Assembly: GCA_020621865.1 (NCBI GenBank)
Contig: JAHRYW010000001.1
Coordinates: 199,177 to 263,176 of the forward strand
DNA: 64,000 bases
Origin: Betaproteobacteria bacterium
Lineage (GTDB): Bacteria; Pseudomonadota; Gammaproteobacteria; Burkholderiales; Rhodocyclaceae
Direction: 5' to 3'
The position numbers were made by a program, and so were the translations under genes. This document shows positions 4,873 through 61,385 of the stretch, piece after piece. The first letter of the stretch is position 1; the number at the start of each line of letters is the position of its first letter. Below the pieces are notes generated by a model. The model was not told where the DNA came from and ran no database searches. It saw nothing but the letters and a program-made list of their open reading frames with translations.

Positions 4873-4914
4873 AAATGCTACGGTCGCCGGCAAAAAAAGG
4901 CCAAAAACAAAAAG
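4873..4914 (+). repeat. Dispersed USS-like repeat, copy 1
   Basis: Core AAATGCTACGGTCG at 4873-4886, followed by an A7 tract and an A5 tract about ten bases apart. It lies between the convergent dtd and HD-GYP genes, just after the dtd stop. Strand is given as that on which GCTACGGT reads 5' to 3'. Confidence 0.9.
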
Positions 4915-4921
4915 CCTGTGC

Positions 4922-6061
4922 TCAGTCGGACTCGCTGCGGGTGCTGGTCAGGACGTCGGGGTAGCCTTTCGGATCGTCCTTGTGGTCGTAGATTTCCTTG
5001 ATGTGGAATTCCAGATCGGTCAGGGCGCCGTTTTCGTCGGCGTAGATTTCACGGATGCGCAGGATTTCCGGCAGGGCGCGTTTGAAGGCCTCGATCAGCG
5101 TGGGGTCGAAATGGTGGCCGGACTGGTCGTCGAAATAGCGCATCGCTTCGTCGAGCGGCACGGCCTTCTTGTACGGACGCACCGAGACGAGGGCGTCGAA
5201 GACGTCGGCGATGGCGACGATCCGCCCTTCGAGCGGGATGTCCTGGCCCTTCAGGCGCTGCGGGTAACCGCTGCCATCCCACTTTTCGTGGTGGGTCAGG
5301 GCGATGATGCGGGCTGTTTCGAGCAGTTCATTGTCGTGCTTGCCGATGATCTCGGCGCCCATGATCGGGTGCTGGTGCATGACCGCCCATTCCTCGGCGT
5401 CGAGCTTGCCCGGCTTGAGCAGGATGGAATCGGGGATGCCGATCTTGCCGATGTCGTGCATCGGCGCGGTATTGAAGATGACGCTGGCCGACTCCTCGCC
5501 GAGGCCGTGGGCGAGGGCGATCAGGCGGGCGTAGTGGCTCATGCGCAGGACGTGGTTGCCGGTCTCGTTGTCCTTGAACTCGGCGGCGCGGCCAAGGCGG
5601 CGGATGATCTGCTGGCGGGTGGTCAGCAGTTCCATCGTGCGTTGCTGGACCATGCGCTCCAGTTCGCGTGACTGGTCGTAGAGGGCGAGGTGGGTGCGCA
5701 CCCGGGCCTCGACGATGGGCGGGCTGATCGGCTTGGTGATGTAGTCGACGGCGCCAGTTTCCAGGCCGCGTTTCTCGTCCTCGGTGCTGCTCATCGCGGT
5801 GACGAAGATGATCGGGATGCGCCGGCGGTCCGGGTTGGCCTTCAGGCGCCGGCAGATTTCCAGGCCGCTGATGCCAGGCATCATGATGTCGAGCAGGATC
5901 AGGTCGGGCGGCTCGTCGGAATAGACGATCTTCAGCGCTTTTTCGCCGGAGGTGGCAACCCGGATGCGATAGTCGTTGCGCAGCACTTCCGAGAGCAGGT
6001 CGATGTTTTCCGGATTGTCGTCGACAATCAGGATGCATTGTTTGGGGAGCAGGGGTGACAT
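4922..6061 (-). CDS. HD-GYP domain response regulator (c-di-GMP phosphodiesterase)
   Basis: 379 aa. An N-terminal receiver (about 6-125, phospho-acceptor Asp58 in LILLDIMMPG) joins through a short coiled coil to an HD-GYP domain (about 150-345). Metal-binding HDIGK and the HHEKWDGSGYP signature are intact, so cyclic-di-GMP hydrolysis is likely. RpfG-type proteins have the same layout, but I do not give that symbol because no rpf genes are nearby. The start is 27 bp downstream of the stop of the large hybrid kinase on the same strand, so the two probably form a kinase-output pair lowering c-di-GMP in response to an extracytoplasmic signal. Confidence 0.93.
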   Translation of the reverse strand: MSPLLPKQCILIVDDNPENIDLLSEVLRNDYRIRVATSGEKALKIVYSDEPPDLILLDIMMPGISGLEICRRLKANPDRRRIPIIFVTAMSSTEDEKRGLETGAVDYITKPISPPIVEARVRTHLALYDQSRELERMVQQRTMELLTTRQQIIRRLGRAAEFKDNETGNHVLRMSHYARLIALAHGLGEESASVIFNTAPMHDIGKIGIPDSILLKPGKLDAEEWAVMHQHPIMGAEIIGKHDNELLETARIIALTHHEKWDGSGYPQRLKGQDIPLEGRIVAIADVFDALVSVRPYKKAVPLDEAMRYFDDQSGHHFDPTLIEAFKRALPEILRIREIYADENGALTDLEFHIKEIYDHKDDPKGYPDVLTSTRSESD

Positions 6062-59293: not shown

Positions 59294-60756
59294 TTGCGGT
59301 CCATGGTCTTGCGCGAAATGCCCAAGCGGCGCCCGGCCTCGGACTTGTTGCCTTCGCAGGCGGAGAGCACGGCCAGGATGTGGCGCTTTTCGACGGCAGC
59401 CAGCGTTTCGTCGCTGGCTGCCGTGGCGTGGAGGCCGACGTCAGGTTCGGGGCCGATGTGAGTCACCCCGGCCAGTGGGCCGGGGCTTCCTCGCCACGAA
59501 TTTGGGGAGCCTTCGGCTCCTTGCAGGCCTGTTTCGCTGACCCCGCCATAAATGGCGCGGCTTGCGCTCACCCCGTGGTCAAACCAGCCGAGGATCAGCG
59601 AGCGCTCGACCAGGTTGCGCAGTTCGCGGACATTGCCCGGCCAGTCGTAGTCGCTGAGCCGGGCGGCGGTGCGCGGATCGAGGGCGAGCGGCGGCACGCC
59701 GAGATTGGGCGTCAGCTGGGCCATGAAATGCTCGACCAGCAGCGGGATGTCCTCCGGCCGTTCGCGCAGCGGCGGCAGGGTGACTTCCAGCACCTGCAAC
59801 CGGTAATAGAGATCCTGCCGAAAACGCTGGGCGGCGACCTCGCCTTTCAGGTCGCGGTTGGTGGCGGCGATGACCCGGACATCGACGGCGATTTCCTGCT
59901 CCGAGCCAACCGGCCGGATACGCCGTTCTTCAAGGGCGCGGAGCAGCTTGGCCTGGGCGGCCAGCGGCAGTTCGGAAATTTCATCAAGAAACAGCGTGCC
60001 GCCGCGGGCGTAGTAGAACAGCCCCTCGCGGCTCTGCTGGGCGCCGGTGTAGGCGCCCTTGACGTGGCCGAACAGCTCGGACTCGATCAATTCGGCCGAG
60101 ATCGCGGCGCAATTGACCGGCACGAAGGGGCCGTTGGCGCGCGGGCTCATCCGGTGCAGGGCGCGGGCGGCGACCTCCTTGCCGGTGCCCGACTCGCCGG
60201 TCAGCAGAATGGTCGCCGGGGTCGGCGCGATGCGCTTGAGGCGGTCGCAGACGGCGAGCATGGTGGCGGACTGGCCGACCATGCCGTCGATGGTCGGCGT
60301 GCGTTCCTCGACCTCGCGGCGCAGCACGAAGTTCTCGCGGCGCAGGCCGGAGCGCTCGAAACAGCGCTCGACAGCGTTGTGCATCTGAGCCACGGAAAAG
60401 GGCTTGAGCAGGAAATCGGCCGCCCCGGCGCGCAGCGCGTCGATGGCCGTGTCGAGATCGGCGTAGGCGGTCATCATGATCACATCGCCAGCAAACCCGT
60501 CCTGGCGCAGCTCGTGCAGCCAGTCGATGCCGGAGCAGCCGGGCAGGGCGATGTCGAGCACGATCAGGTCGTACAGTTGGCGCTGCAACAGCGGCGTCGC
60601 CGCCTCGACGCTGTCGGCGGTGTCGACCTTGCCGTAGCGTCGGGTCAGCGCCCGCTGCAGAAAACTGACCATGCCCGGTTCGTCGTCGACGACGAGGATC
60701 GAGAACTGTTGGCGCAGTGCGCGGTCGGCGTCTTCGGCCGGATTATTGTTGTCCAT
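59272..60756 (-). CDS. Sigma-54 dependent response regulator
   Basis: 494 aa from MDNNNPAEDADRAL, with GGAGGAGC upstream. Receiver (about 18-130, Asp in LIVLDIALPGCSG), AAA+ domain (Walker A GESGTGKE, sigma-54 contact loop GAYTGA, Walker B GGTLFLDEIS, RERPEDIP) and a C-terminal Fis HTH (NKSEAGRRLGISRKTMDRK). The GAYTGA loop is the accepted variant of GAFTGA. The linker before the HTH contains an in-frame palindromic insert (59466-59560). It controls unknown genes with its cognate Cache kinase. Confidence 0.93.
   Translation of the reverse strand: MDNNNPAEDADRALRQQFSILVVDDEPGMVSFLQRALTRRYGKVDTADSVEAATPLLQRQLYDLIVLDIALPGCSGIDWLHELRQDGFAGDVIMMTAYADLDTAIDALRAGAADFLLKPFSVAQMHNAVERCFERSGLRRENFVLRREVEERTPTIDGMVGQSATMLAVCDRLKRIAPTPATILLTGESGTGKEVAARALHRMSPRANGPFVPVNCAAISAELIESELFGHVKGAYTGAQQSREGLFYYARGGTLFLDEISELPLAAQAKLLRALEERRIRPVGSEQEIAVDVRVIAATNRDLKGEVAAQRFRQDLYYRLQVLEVTLPPLRERPEDIPLLVEHFMAQLTPNLGVPPLALDPRTAARLSDYDWPGNVRELRNLVERSLILGWFDHGVSASRAIYGGVSETGLQGAEGSPNSWRGSPGPLAGVTHIGPEPDVGLHATAASDETLAAVEKRHILAVLSACEGNKSEAGRRLGISRKTMDRKCQAWGI
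59466..59560. repeat. In-frame palindromic element inside the sigma-54 regulator gene
   Basis: Three adjacent hairpins: CCCCGGCC/GGCCGGGG (59466-59485), GGAGCC/GGCTCC (59506-59520) and CCGCCAT/ATGGCG (59544-59560). They sit in the linker between AAA+ and HTH and encode roughly GGVSETGLQGAEGSPNS-type residues, unlike the flanking family sequence. It looks like an inserted palindromic repeat tolerated in a flexible region. Confidence 0.6.
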
Positions 60757-61385
60757 GCTCCTCCTTGATTCGTTGGCATCATCGCAAATTTGGAGGGGGA
60801 CAGGCAATTTCTGAGGGTGCCTTTTCTCAAGCTGTGTTTTCCGCGCTTGAGGCGCGTCTTACTTTCTTTTGCTTCGCCAAAAGAAAGGTAAGCAAAGAAA
60901 AGGCGACCCTGGGTCGGCGCCGGCTACGCCGGTTCCCTGCGCTACTCGGCAGGCCGGGCGGCTGCGGAACTCGGGGCTGCGCCCCTCAGACAGTCCTCGC
61001 CGAAAGCCCCCGGCCTTCCTGCGTTGCTCGGCGCCTCCCAAGGGGCCCGGAAAAACATCCGTGGCCGAGCTGGGGAATTTCAAATTTGGGCATTTTTTCG
61101 GCCTGACCGTAGCATTTCGGCCGGATAGACCCTTCCGCCCGGACGCCTTTCGGGTCCCCCTGAGAGGCGCTGAGCAACGCAGCCGCTGGCGGAAAAAGGG
61201 CGAGGACTGTTTGAGGGCCGAAGGCCCGAGTTCCGCAGCCCCCGCCAGTGGCGAGTAGCGCAAGGGACCGGCGAAGCCGGCGCCGACCCGGGGGTCGCCT
61301 TTTCTTTGGCTACTTTCTTTTGGCGAAGCAAAAGAAAGTACGCCCGCCCTCAAGGCGGAAAGCACGGGTCCAGAAAAGGCACTCC
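60757..61385. repeat. Intergenic region with large inverted repeat
   Basis: About 630 bp without a credible gene. From about 60843 to 61358 two arms of roughly 215 bp are imperfect inverted copies; each outer end carries ACTTTCTTTTGCTTCGCC followed by AAAAGAAAG, itself a hairpin, and then AAAGAAAAGGCGACC. This is the widespread proteobacterial repeat often misannotated as small proteins. The central loop holds USS-like copy 13. The leftmost bases carry the leader of the sigma-54 regulator gene. Confidence 0.85.
61079..61120 (-). repeat. Dispersed USS-like repeat, copy 13
   Basis: Minus-strand core GAAATGCTACGGTCAGG, followed by A6 and AAATTT tracts. It lies in the loop between the arms of the large inverted repeat. 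Confidence 0.9.

What the first reader, a model, noticed from the sequence alone, without database searches (positions are those of the whole stretch)
4873..61120. Dispersed 40 bp repeat with the layout of a DNA uptake signal sequence
Thirteen copies occur at 4873, 10493, 12084, 15652, 24294, 26382, 38479, 39371, 45531, 46766, 55969, 57199 and 61079. Twelve contain RAATGCTACGGT exactly, in both orientations (5 plus, 8 minus including the degenerate one). Chance expectation for RAATGCTACGGT on both strands of 64 kb at equal base use is about 0.015. After the core comes CGG-type sequence, then an A/T tract about 8-13 bases after GGT, and a second (often third) A/T tract about ten bases further on. 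The Pasteurellaceae USS has the same plan, a GC-containing core plus helically spaced A/T tracts, and even ends its core in CGGT. Copies lie inside housekeeping genes and just past stop codons, as uptake signals do. dprA is in the window. I know of no uptake signal described in Rhodocyclales. Inference: biased natural transformation in this group with its own signal dialect.
Basis: partly seen in the sequence, partly recalled or inferred. Interest (0 to 1): 0.95.

Follow-up and report, generated by a model that had tools for sequence, protein, structure and literature searches.

The report
New uptake signal in Azonexus/Dechloromonas genomes
Many bacteria of the Azonexus/Dechloromonas group carry hundreds of copies of a roughly 40-letter DNA tag, written in different dialects in different species, that likely marks their own DNA for uptake from the environment; such tags are reported from only two other bacterial families, so this would be a third.

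Summary
A profile trained on DNA outside the window finds exactly the 13 reported copies and none in the reversed window. RAATGCTACGGT occurs 271 times in the 2.90 Mb genome against 0 for the reversed pattern. The genus is GTDB Azonexus (Dechloromonas/Azonexus). Of 76 genus genomes, 36 pass thresholds for one of three dialects: D1 ATGCTACGGTCG, D2 YACGGTCRRCCSRAAA (mostly YACGGTCAACCGG), D3 CTGCGGTCGAC; a fourth, CACGGTCRAC, is seen in G122. Samples of other genera of the family and order show nothing comparable. D1 and D2 cores are followed by three A/T tracts; D3 keeps mainly the second. Aligned genomes carry their own dialect at the same places: 58 of 73 D1-to-D2 and 79 of 100 D1-to-D3 comparisons, under 1% at random places. 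Copies outside genes cluster just past stop codons. Uptake signals behave like this, and only Neisseriaceae and Pasteurellaceae are reported to have them. Against: uptake is untested, the receptor unknown, the ComP-like pilin does not follow dialect, and this genome's own comEC is interrupted.

The parts
4872..4915 (+). uptake-signal-like site 1, dialect D1, between convergent genes, 30 bp past a stop
   Evidence: profile score 56.5
10493..10536 (+). site 2, D1, 34 bp past the stop of an ApbE-like gene (10541-11572 minus)
   Evidence: 49.9
12084..12127 (+). site 3, D1, inside the ORF holding glutathione synthase (11557-13125 minus)
   Evidence: 46.2
15647..15690 (-). site 4, D1, at and just past the stop of an ABC-F ATPase gene (14027-15649 plus)
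   Evidence: 63.8
24279..24322 (-). site 5, D1, inside fmt (23532-24455 plus)
   Evidence: 38.5
26378..26421 (-). site 6, D1, inside ORF 25936-26823 minus (no NCBIfam family)
   Evidence: 62.1
38479..38522 (+). site 7, D1, 25 bp past the stop of priA (36473-38455 plus)
   Evidence: 60.8
39356..39399 (-). site 8, D1 core with poorer tracts, inside a fructokinase-like ROK kinase gene (39291-40184 minus)
   Evidence: 25.1
45525..45568 (-). site 9, D1, inside a predicted gene
   Evidence: 58.1; not among the intergenic cores
46767..46810 (+). site 10, D1, inside a predicted gene
   Evidence: 51.7; not among the intergenic cores
55964..56007 (-). site 11, degenerate copy (GGCTACGGTCAG core), inside metH (53318-57073 minus)
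   Evidence: 24.0
57193..57236 (-). site 12, D1, 10 bp past the stop of a histidine kinase gene (57245-59293 minus)
   Evidence: 53.1
61075..61118 (-). site 13, D1, between moeA and an NtrC-like gene, 269 bp past the moeA stop
   Evidence: 63.6
20785..21864 (-). dprA, transformation-associated DNA-processing protein
   Evidence: TIGR00732 272.1 bits, cut-off 191.15

Best explanation
The repeat is one of hundreds of scattered copies, in both orientations, of a motif that likely serves as the DNA uptake signal of the Azonexus/Dechloromonas genus: a surface receptor of the type IV pilus/competence machinery would bind the core, and the A/T tracts downstream would help the DNA bend or melt for entry. 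Shown here: abundance, both orientations, the core-plus-A/T-tract plan, three abundant dialects plus a fourth, different dialects at shared sites, preference for the space just past stop codons, and strong enrichment in one genus only among those sampled. Inferred: that the motif biases uptake; that copies accumulate because DNA bearing them is taken up and recombined in preference (molecular drive); that dialect shifts follow a change in receptor specificity. Not identified: the receptor.
For: 271 copies against 0 for the reversed pattern in this genome; 50 AATGCTACGGTC in 400 kb against 0.04 expected. Profile and logos with A/T tracts. Dialects: D1 (with D2-pattern matches) in 3, D2 in 9, D2+D3 in 3, D3 in 21 of 76 genus genomes, 3 weak, 37 below. 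Cross-dialect site sharing: D1 to D2 58 of 73, D1 to D3 79 of 100, D2 to D1 54 of 66, D2 to D3 242 of 308, D3 to D2 408 of 622, D3 to D1 111 of 189, random aligned places 0.3-1.0% (28 of 81 loci used, comparisons not independent). On a TopB tree D2 is one clade (98 SH-aLRT) and D1 one clade (79), labels set by hand. 39 of 64 cores lie outside predicted genes although 87% (contig C4) and 92% (window) of bases are coding; of the 39, 18 are between convergent and 3 between divergent genes, and 32 lie within 100 bp past a stop (my count from the list); spacing has CV 0.67. ComEC in 71 of 76 genus genomes; pilins and DprA.
Against: No uptake or binding data. The window's genome has comEC in pieces (residues 1-241, 238-666, then a break), so its sites may be relics. 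The ComP_DUS pilin is in 70 of 76 genomes with or without the signal, and its tree does not follow dialect (8 label changes for 11 D2 rows, shuffled mean 10.2; 15 for 18 D3 rows, shuffled mean 15.3). 37 of 76 genomes fall under the thresholds (one of them, G122, has the fourth dialect), although ComEC is found in 51 of 51 good-quality genomes. TGCGGTCRAC shows a modest excess over its control in several other genera, for example G009 58 against 7 and G106 72 against 12. Copy number is below the about 1300 of H. influenzae (PMC5217627 passage).
Confidence: 0.82

Rival explanations
1. The repeats are binding sites of a chromosome-organising or DNA-repair protein (of the KOPS, matS, SlmA or Chi kind, recalled) and have nothing to do with uptake.
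For: Many dispersed copies with an A/T-phased, bend-prone plan; sites kept at the same places across species.
Against: No strand polarity seen: G133 has 220 forward and 226 reverse copies, and in 19 of its stretches (several chosen around listed forward copies, hence an excess of plus) the ratio is 21 plus to 10 minus where GC skew is positive and 11 to 7 where it is negative, so orientation does not flip with the replication arm. Preference for 3' ends of genes and convergent gaps. Dialect-wide differences at shared sites within one genus, with no comparable enrichment in other genera sampled, are not expected of a housekeeping DNA site.
Confidence: 0.1
2. The repeats are a mobile repeat family (REP or MITE type) spread by a transposase.
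For: Dispersed and repeated; restricted to one genus.
Against: At sites 12085, 24280 and 26379, inside genes, most of the 14 best aligned relatives shown pass through the site without an insertion, with another dialect or none in place, so the motif arose by substitution. Conservation falls close to background outside about -2..+39. No transposase was looked for at the copies.
Confidence: 0.02
3. The sites are relics: an ancestral uptake signal no longer used, decaying in this lineage.
For: comEC is interrupted in G000, and many relatives lack the signal.
Against: Copies in G000 are sharp (profile scores up to 63.8), and the D1 dialect is shared by G162, which has an open 775-aa comEC, so the lineage likely used it recently; this adds to the main reading rather than replacing it.
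Confidence: 0.05

Closest known systems
Pasteurellaceae uptake signal sequence (USS; Hin AAGTGCGGT, Apl ACAAGCGGT)
   Same: Short core followed downstream by separate A/T-rich regions; dialects that follow phylogeny; hundreds of copies. The D3 dialect (TGCTGCGGTCGAC) contains the Pasteurellaceae inner core GCGG and even GCGGT. USS description from PMC12616744, Introduction.
   Different: Another class of bacteria; a GC-rich stretch (such as CRACCSG) between core and first tract; a third tract in D1 and D2; D1, D2 and D4 have ACGGT in place of GCGGT; fewer copies; no closely paired copies in the 400 kb examined (smallest gap 1393 bp), so no hairpin terminators made of two signals there.
Neisseriaceae DNA uptake sequence (DUS, GCCGTCTGAA and dialects) with receptor ComP
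   Same: Dialects around a conserved inner core that follow phylogeny; a ComP_DUS-family pilin is encoded here too.
   Different: DUS is a continuous motif of up to about 13 nt with inner core CTG, which the D1 core and D2 consensus lack. The ComP-like pilin here does not follow dialect.

Membership tests
DNA uptake signals (functional class) | Hundreds or more copies, far above chance, genome-wide | tested here: met
   271 against 0; up to 446; up to 646
DNA uptake signals (functional class) | Both orientations, coding and intergenic, often 3' of genes | tested here: met
   25 of 64 cores inside predicted genes, 39 outside, 32 of these within 100 bp past a stop
DNA uptake signals (functional class) | Dialects within a clade that follow phylogeny | tested here: met
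   D1 and D2 one clade each on TopB, D3 scattered (11 changes); dialects differ at shared sites
DNA uptake signals (functional class) | Host carries type IV pilus and competence genes | tested here: inconclusive
   DprA, pilins and ComEC found, but comEC of G000 is interrupted; PilQ, PilT, ComEA and ComM not searched
DNA uptake signals (functional class) | Motif raises uptake or transformation | not testable with these tools
   needs an uptake assay
Pasteurellaceae USS | Inner core GCGG | tested here: inconclusive
   met by D3; not met by D1, D2 and D4, which have ACGG
Pasteurellaceae USS | Two separate A/T-rich regions downstream of the core | tested here: met
   tracts at about +17..22 and +28..33 in D1, same plan in D2; D3 shows mainly the second
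Pasteurellaceae USS | Carried by Pasteurellaceae | tested here: not met
   genus is Azonexus/Dechloromonas, a betaproteobacterial group
Neisseriaceae DUS | Inner core CTG, continuous motif without A/T tracts | tested here: not met
   D1 core and D2 consensus lack CTG, and A/T tracts follow the core
Neisseriaceae DUS | ComP receptor matched to the dialect | tested here: not met
   ComP_DUS pilin present but not sorted by dialect
REP/MITE mobile repeat | Sites appear by insertion of a unit | tested here: not met
   mostly ungapped alignment through the three sites inside genes

The most novel reading that the evidence does not exclude
A third, independently arisen uptake-signal system exists in Betaproteobacteria: the genus Azonexus/Dechloromonas marks its DNA with a signal built on the Pasteurellaceae plan (an [A/G]CGGT heart plus downstream A/T tracts), has split it into at least four dialects that overwrite one another at the same chromosomal sites, and uses a receptor other than the ComP-like pilin.
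Probability: 0.72. Interest if true: 0.92.

Novelty: new variant of a known kind. Interest (0 to 1): 0.86.

Why it matters
Sequence-biased DNA uptake is described in two bacterial families only, and a 2025 paper says so (PMC12616744, Introduction). A third case, in environmental betaproteobacteria (several carrier records are sludge, soil or groundwater MAGs by title), with four dialects inside one genus, would give an independent test of how uptake signals arise, spread and change, and of what reads them. The likeness to the Pasteurellaceae plan hints at a physical reason for core plus A/T tracts. Isolates carry it: Azonexus sp. R2A61 (646 copies of CTGCGGTCGAC; identified by matching contig length) and Dechloromonas denitrificans ATCC BAA-841 (6 TGCGGTCGAC in 22 kb against 0.3 expected).

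Tried and rejected
Receptor by ComP: the ComP_DUS pilin looked ideal but is present in carriers and non-carriers and its tree does not follow dialect; dropped as the dialect-setting receptor, though a role in binding is not excluded. Receptor by pilin repertoire: a table of pilin genes in 15 genomes was cut short by the tool and, by eye only, shows no gene set peculiar to carriers. Hairpin inside the signal: the GC stretches beside tract 1 pair only slightly better than shuffled (z 3.4, best of 16 registers); not used. De novo signal in below-threshold genomes G121, G125, G126, G112 and other genera G067, G034: none clear in 80-100 kb each. The D2-pattern list for G133 showed only forward copies; checked because true one-sidedness would have pointed to a chromosome-polarity site: reverse copies are there, so the list was cut short. 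A first automatic dialect labelling of the TopB loci mislabelled D2 loci, because they also hold D3 sites, and was replaced by labels set by hand. Literature: six searches listed no title reporting an uptake signal in Dechloromonas, Azonexus or Rhodocyclales; only part of each long hit list was shown and only open-licence PubMed Central papers are held, so absence from print is not proven.
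Full report
Observation. The window holds 12 exact RAATGCTACGGT. To test the thirteenth copy and the A/T tracts without circularity, I built a 44-position profile from the ATGCTACGGT sites in 400 kb of contig C4 (52 in that stretch) and scanned the window: 13 hits at thresholds 18 and 22, at the 13 reported places, and none in the reversed window; at 26 the two weakest (39356 and 55964) drop out. 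The degenerate copy lies in metH. In 71 copies, some from relatives, the conserved stretch runs from about -2 to +39 around ATGCTACGGT, with A/T tracts at about +17..+22, +28..+33 and +35..+39.

Genome-wide. The window lies in contig C3 of G000 (2,901,865 bases, 17 contigs, completeness 74.65). The 12-mer occurs 122 times forward and 149 reverse, the reversed pattern 0 times. In 400 kb of C4, AATGCTACGGTC is seen 50 times against 0.04 expected from 4-mer statistics. With a looser rule there are about 19 sites per 100 kb. Codon-preserving controls were not run.

Who else has it. In a family sample of 121 genomes (G000 included) the D1 12-mer is abundant only in G000 (others 0 to 2). In the genus (76 genomes) ATGCTACGGTCG gives 209 in G000, 391 in G162 and 296 in G187, at most 26 in others. 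De novo 9- to 12-mers in 100 kb of four genus mates gave, among the top words, related but different ones: TGCTGCGGTCGA in G161, CACGGTCGAC and CACGGTCAAC in G122, CACGGTCAACCGG in G133 (below a local CCTGCTCCT-type repeat); in G112 local repeats dominate and nothing clear is seen. Whole-genus counts: YACGGTCRRCCSRAAA up to 446 with controls 0 to 2, CTGCGGTCGAC up to 646 with controls 0 to 10. With thresholds of 25, 9 and 25 per Mb for D1, D2 and D3, 36 of 76 genomes pass, 3 are weak and 37 are below; among the 37 is G122, whose CACGGTCGAC occurs 24 times in 100 kb against 0.5 expected.

Outside the genus. ACGGTCRRCCSRAAA gives 0 to 2 per genome in the 194 genomes of other genera among 199 of the family. 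TGCGGTCRAC reaches at most 81 there, against 728 in G062 and 513 in G147; it is nevertheless above its control in several genera (G009 58 against 7, G106 72 against 12, G526 46 against 5), which I cannot explain. CGGTCRRCCSRAAA gives at most 6 in the other genera among 300 order genomes. These searches use this genus's dialects; a different signal in another genus would be missed, and only G067 and G034 were looked at de novo (none seen).

Names. A TopB search of named genomes places the genus as Azonexus/Dechloromonas (the best 80 of 480 loci kept). By equal contig length, G154 is JAAXVL01 (Azonexaceae MAG), G190 is OU015322.1 (MAG DEC001_d71) and G170 is Azonexus sp. R2A61. D3 words are also enriched in the loci of D. 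denitrificans ATCC BAA-841, D. hortensis, A. hydrophilus ZS02, Dechloromonas sp. Dech2017 and H13 (5 to 7 TGCGGTCGAC each against 0.3 expected).

Same sites, different dialects. Of the 12 exact window sites, five are covered by genus loci in the alignments; at four of them (12085, 15648, 24280, 26379) several relatives show their own dialect in the aligned place, and at 10494 only L159 aligns, with a shifted copy. Site 15648, just past a stop, needs gaps in many relatives; the three sites inside genes align mostly without gaps. Over 28 of 81 loci of the TopB region the share of alignable sites with a [AG]CGGTCRR at the same place (within 4 bases) is 58 of 73 from D1 to D2, 79 of 100 D1 to D3, 54 of 66 D2 to D1, 242 of 308 D2 to D3, 408 of 622 D3 to D2, 111 of 189 D3 to D1, and lowest 11 of 28 for D4 to D1; random aligned places give 0.3 to 1.0%. 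These comparisons share sites and ancestry, so they are not independent. Some shared places keep one word in all dialects (for example AGCACGGTCAAC), perhaps through coding constraint. In 17 loci first taken as non-carriers the share is 111 of 574, of which L183, L190 and L195 give 66 of 132; these three may carry a weak or other dialect (L190 holds four TGCGGTCRAC). The other 14 give 45 of 442; 31 loci of other genera give 17 of 438 (up to four carriers per dialect used as queries). On the TopB tree, with labels set by hand, D2 is one clade (98 SH-aLRT), D1 one clade (79), D3 needs 11 changes. I read D3 as the older form; that is inference.

Placement. With a simple codon-usage gene finder, 25 of 64 cores lie in genes (11 same strand, 14 opposite) and 39 outside, though 87% of C4 and 92% of the window is coding. 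Of the 39, 18 are between convergent genes, 11 and 7 between genes of one direction, 3 between divergent genes; 32 lie within 100 bp past a stop by my count of the list. Gaps between the 52 C4 sites average 7.8 kb with CV 0.67, smallest 1393 bp. So no paired signals form terminators there, unlike in Neisseria and Haemophilus (PMC1852404 and PMC13020248, passages only). Orientation does not flip with GC skew in G133: 49 sites in 19 stretches, 21 plus and 10 minus where the skew is positive, 11 and 7 where negative; several stretches had been chosen around forward copies.

Machinery. DprA is in the window. G000 has eight pilin-like matches, seven over the cut-off, including an operon with ComP_DUS (E 1.6e-9, over the cut-off), GspH/FimT-like, PilW and PilY1 proteins. 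ComEC is found in 71 of 76 genus genomes and in 51 of 51 good ones. But in G000 ComEC is in pieces: residues 1-241, then about 2.3 kb of other DNA, residues 238-666, then a break; a serine recombinase gene lies nearby. G191 has a 5.3-kb insert at residue 241 with a TniB-like gene; in G130, G154, G174 and G192 only the part from residue 238-257 onward is found in the stretch read; in G177 the contig ends there, which says nothing. G133 and the D1 relative G162 have open comEC. PilQ, PilT, ComEA and ComM were not searched.

Receptor. The ComP_DUS pilin occurs in 70 of 76 genomes. A tree of 56 of these proteins (58 loci tried, two gave no protein) needs 8 changes for the 11 D2 rows (shuffled mean 10.2, as low in 13 of 500), 15 for the 18 D3 rows (shuffled 15.3), and groups the 2 D1 rows; all labels together 23 against 27.1 shuffled. 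There is slight clustering, as near relatives would give, but the dialects do not sort. So it is not the dialect-setting receptor on this evidence. The receptor is open.

Mechanism. The best reading is an uptake signal: a surface protein of the type IV pilus would bind the core, and the A/T tracts would aid melting or kinking, as anticipated for the Pasteurellaceae (PMC12616744, Introduction). Shown: motif, dialects, shared sites, placement, range. Inferred: binding, biased uptake, drive. [quoted passage not shown] in PMC13020248, PMC1852404, PMC3630211 and PMC5217627 (passages by term search) Dechloromonas occurs 0 times in the main text; the listings of searches show no report. The recalled comparisons with KOPS, matS, SlmA and Chi come from no call.

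Noticed in passing
L313 (G000:C11:197000-212000), L340, L333, L334, L335, L336: comEC is interrupted at residues about 238-257, near the conserved HLMSISGLH region, in six genomes examined (G000 and G191 with both parts seen; G130, G154, G174, G192 with only the later part in the stretch read); one insert has a TniB-like gene, and G000 has a second break with a serine recombinase gene nearby. It looks like recurrent insertion into the predicted DNA-import channel gene.
   Followed up: partly
G122 and G161 stretches L091-L100: CGGTCGAC contains the palindrome GTCGAC, and head-to-head overlapping cores (ACGGTCGACCGT, GCGGTCGACCGC) are enriched (about 8 and 6 sites per 100 kb), reminiscent of the overlapping dyad pairs noted for Simonsiella muelleri (PMC3630211 passage).
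   Followed up: no
G000 C4 stretches L061-L080; G133, G161, G122 samples: Words with CTGCTC/GAGCAG (for example ATCCTGCTC 40 against 6.1 expected in G000) are also over-represented; could be a Chi-like site or leucine codon usage, and in G133 partly a local repeat.
   Followed up: no
ComP_DUS pilin loci L141, L243-L272, L301-L331: The ComP_DUS pilins come in very different types even between relatives with one dialect, as if the genes or their operons were swapped.
   Followed up: partly
L195 (Azonexaceae bacterium s22): CGCGGTCGAC occurs 5 times in 22 kb against 0.3 expected, and 25 of 47 carrier sites have a motif at the aligned place: possibly a fifth dialect.
   Followed up: no
family genomes G009, G106, G526 and others: TGCGGTCRAC is several times above its reversed control at low counts in some other genera of the family; an older or weaker form of the signal, or composition.
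   Followed up: no
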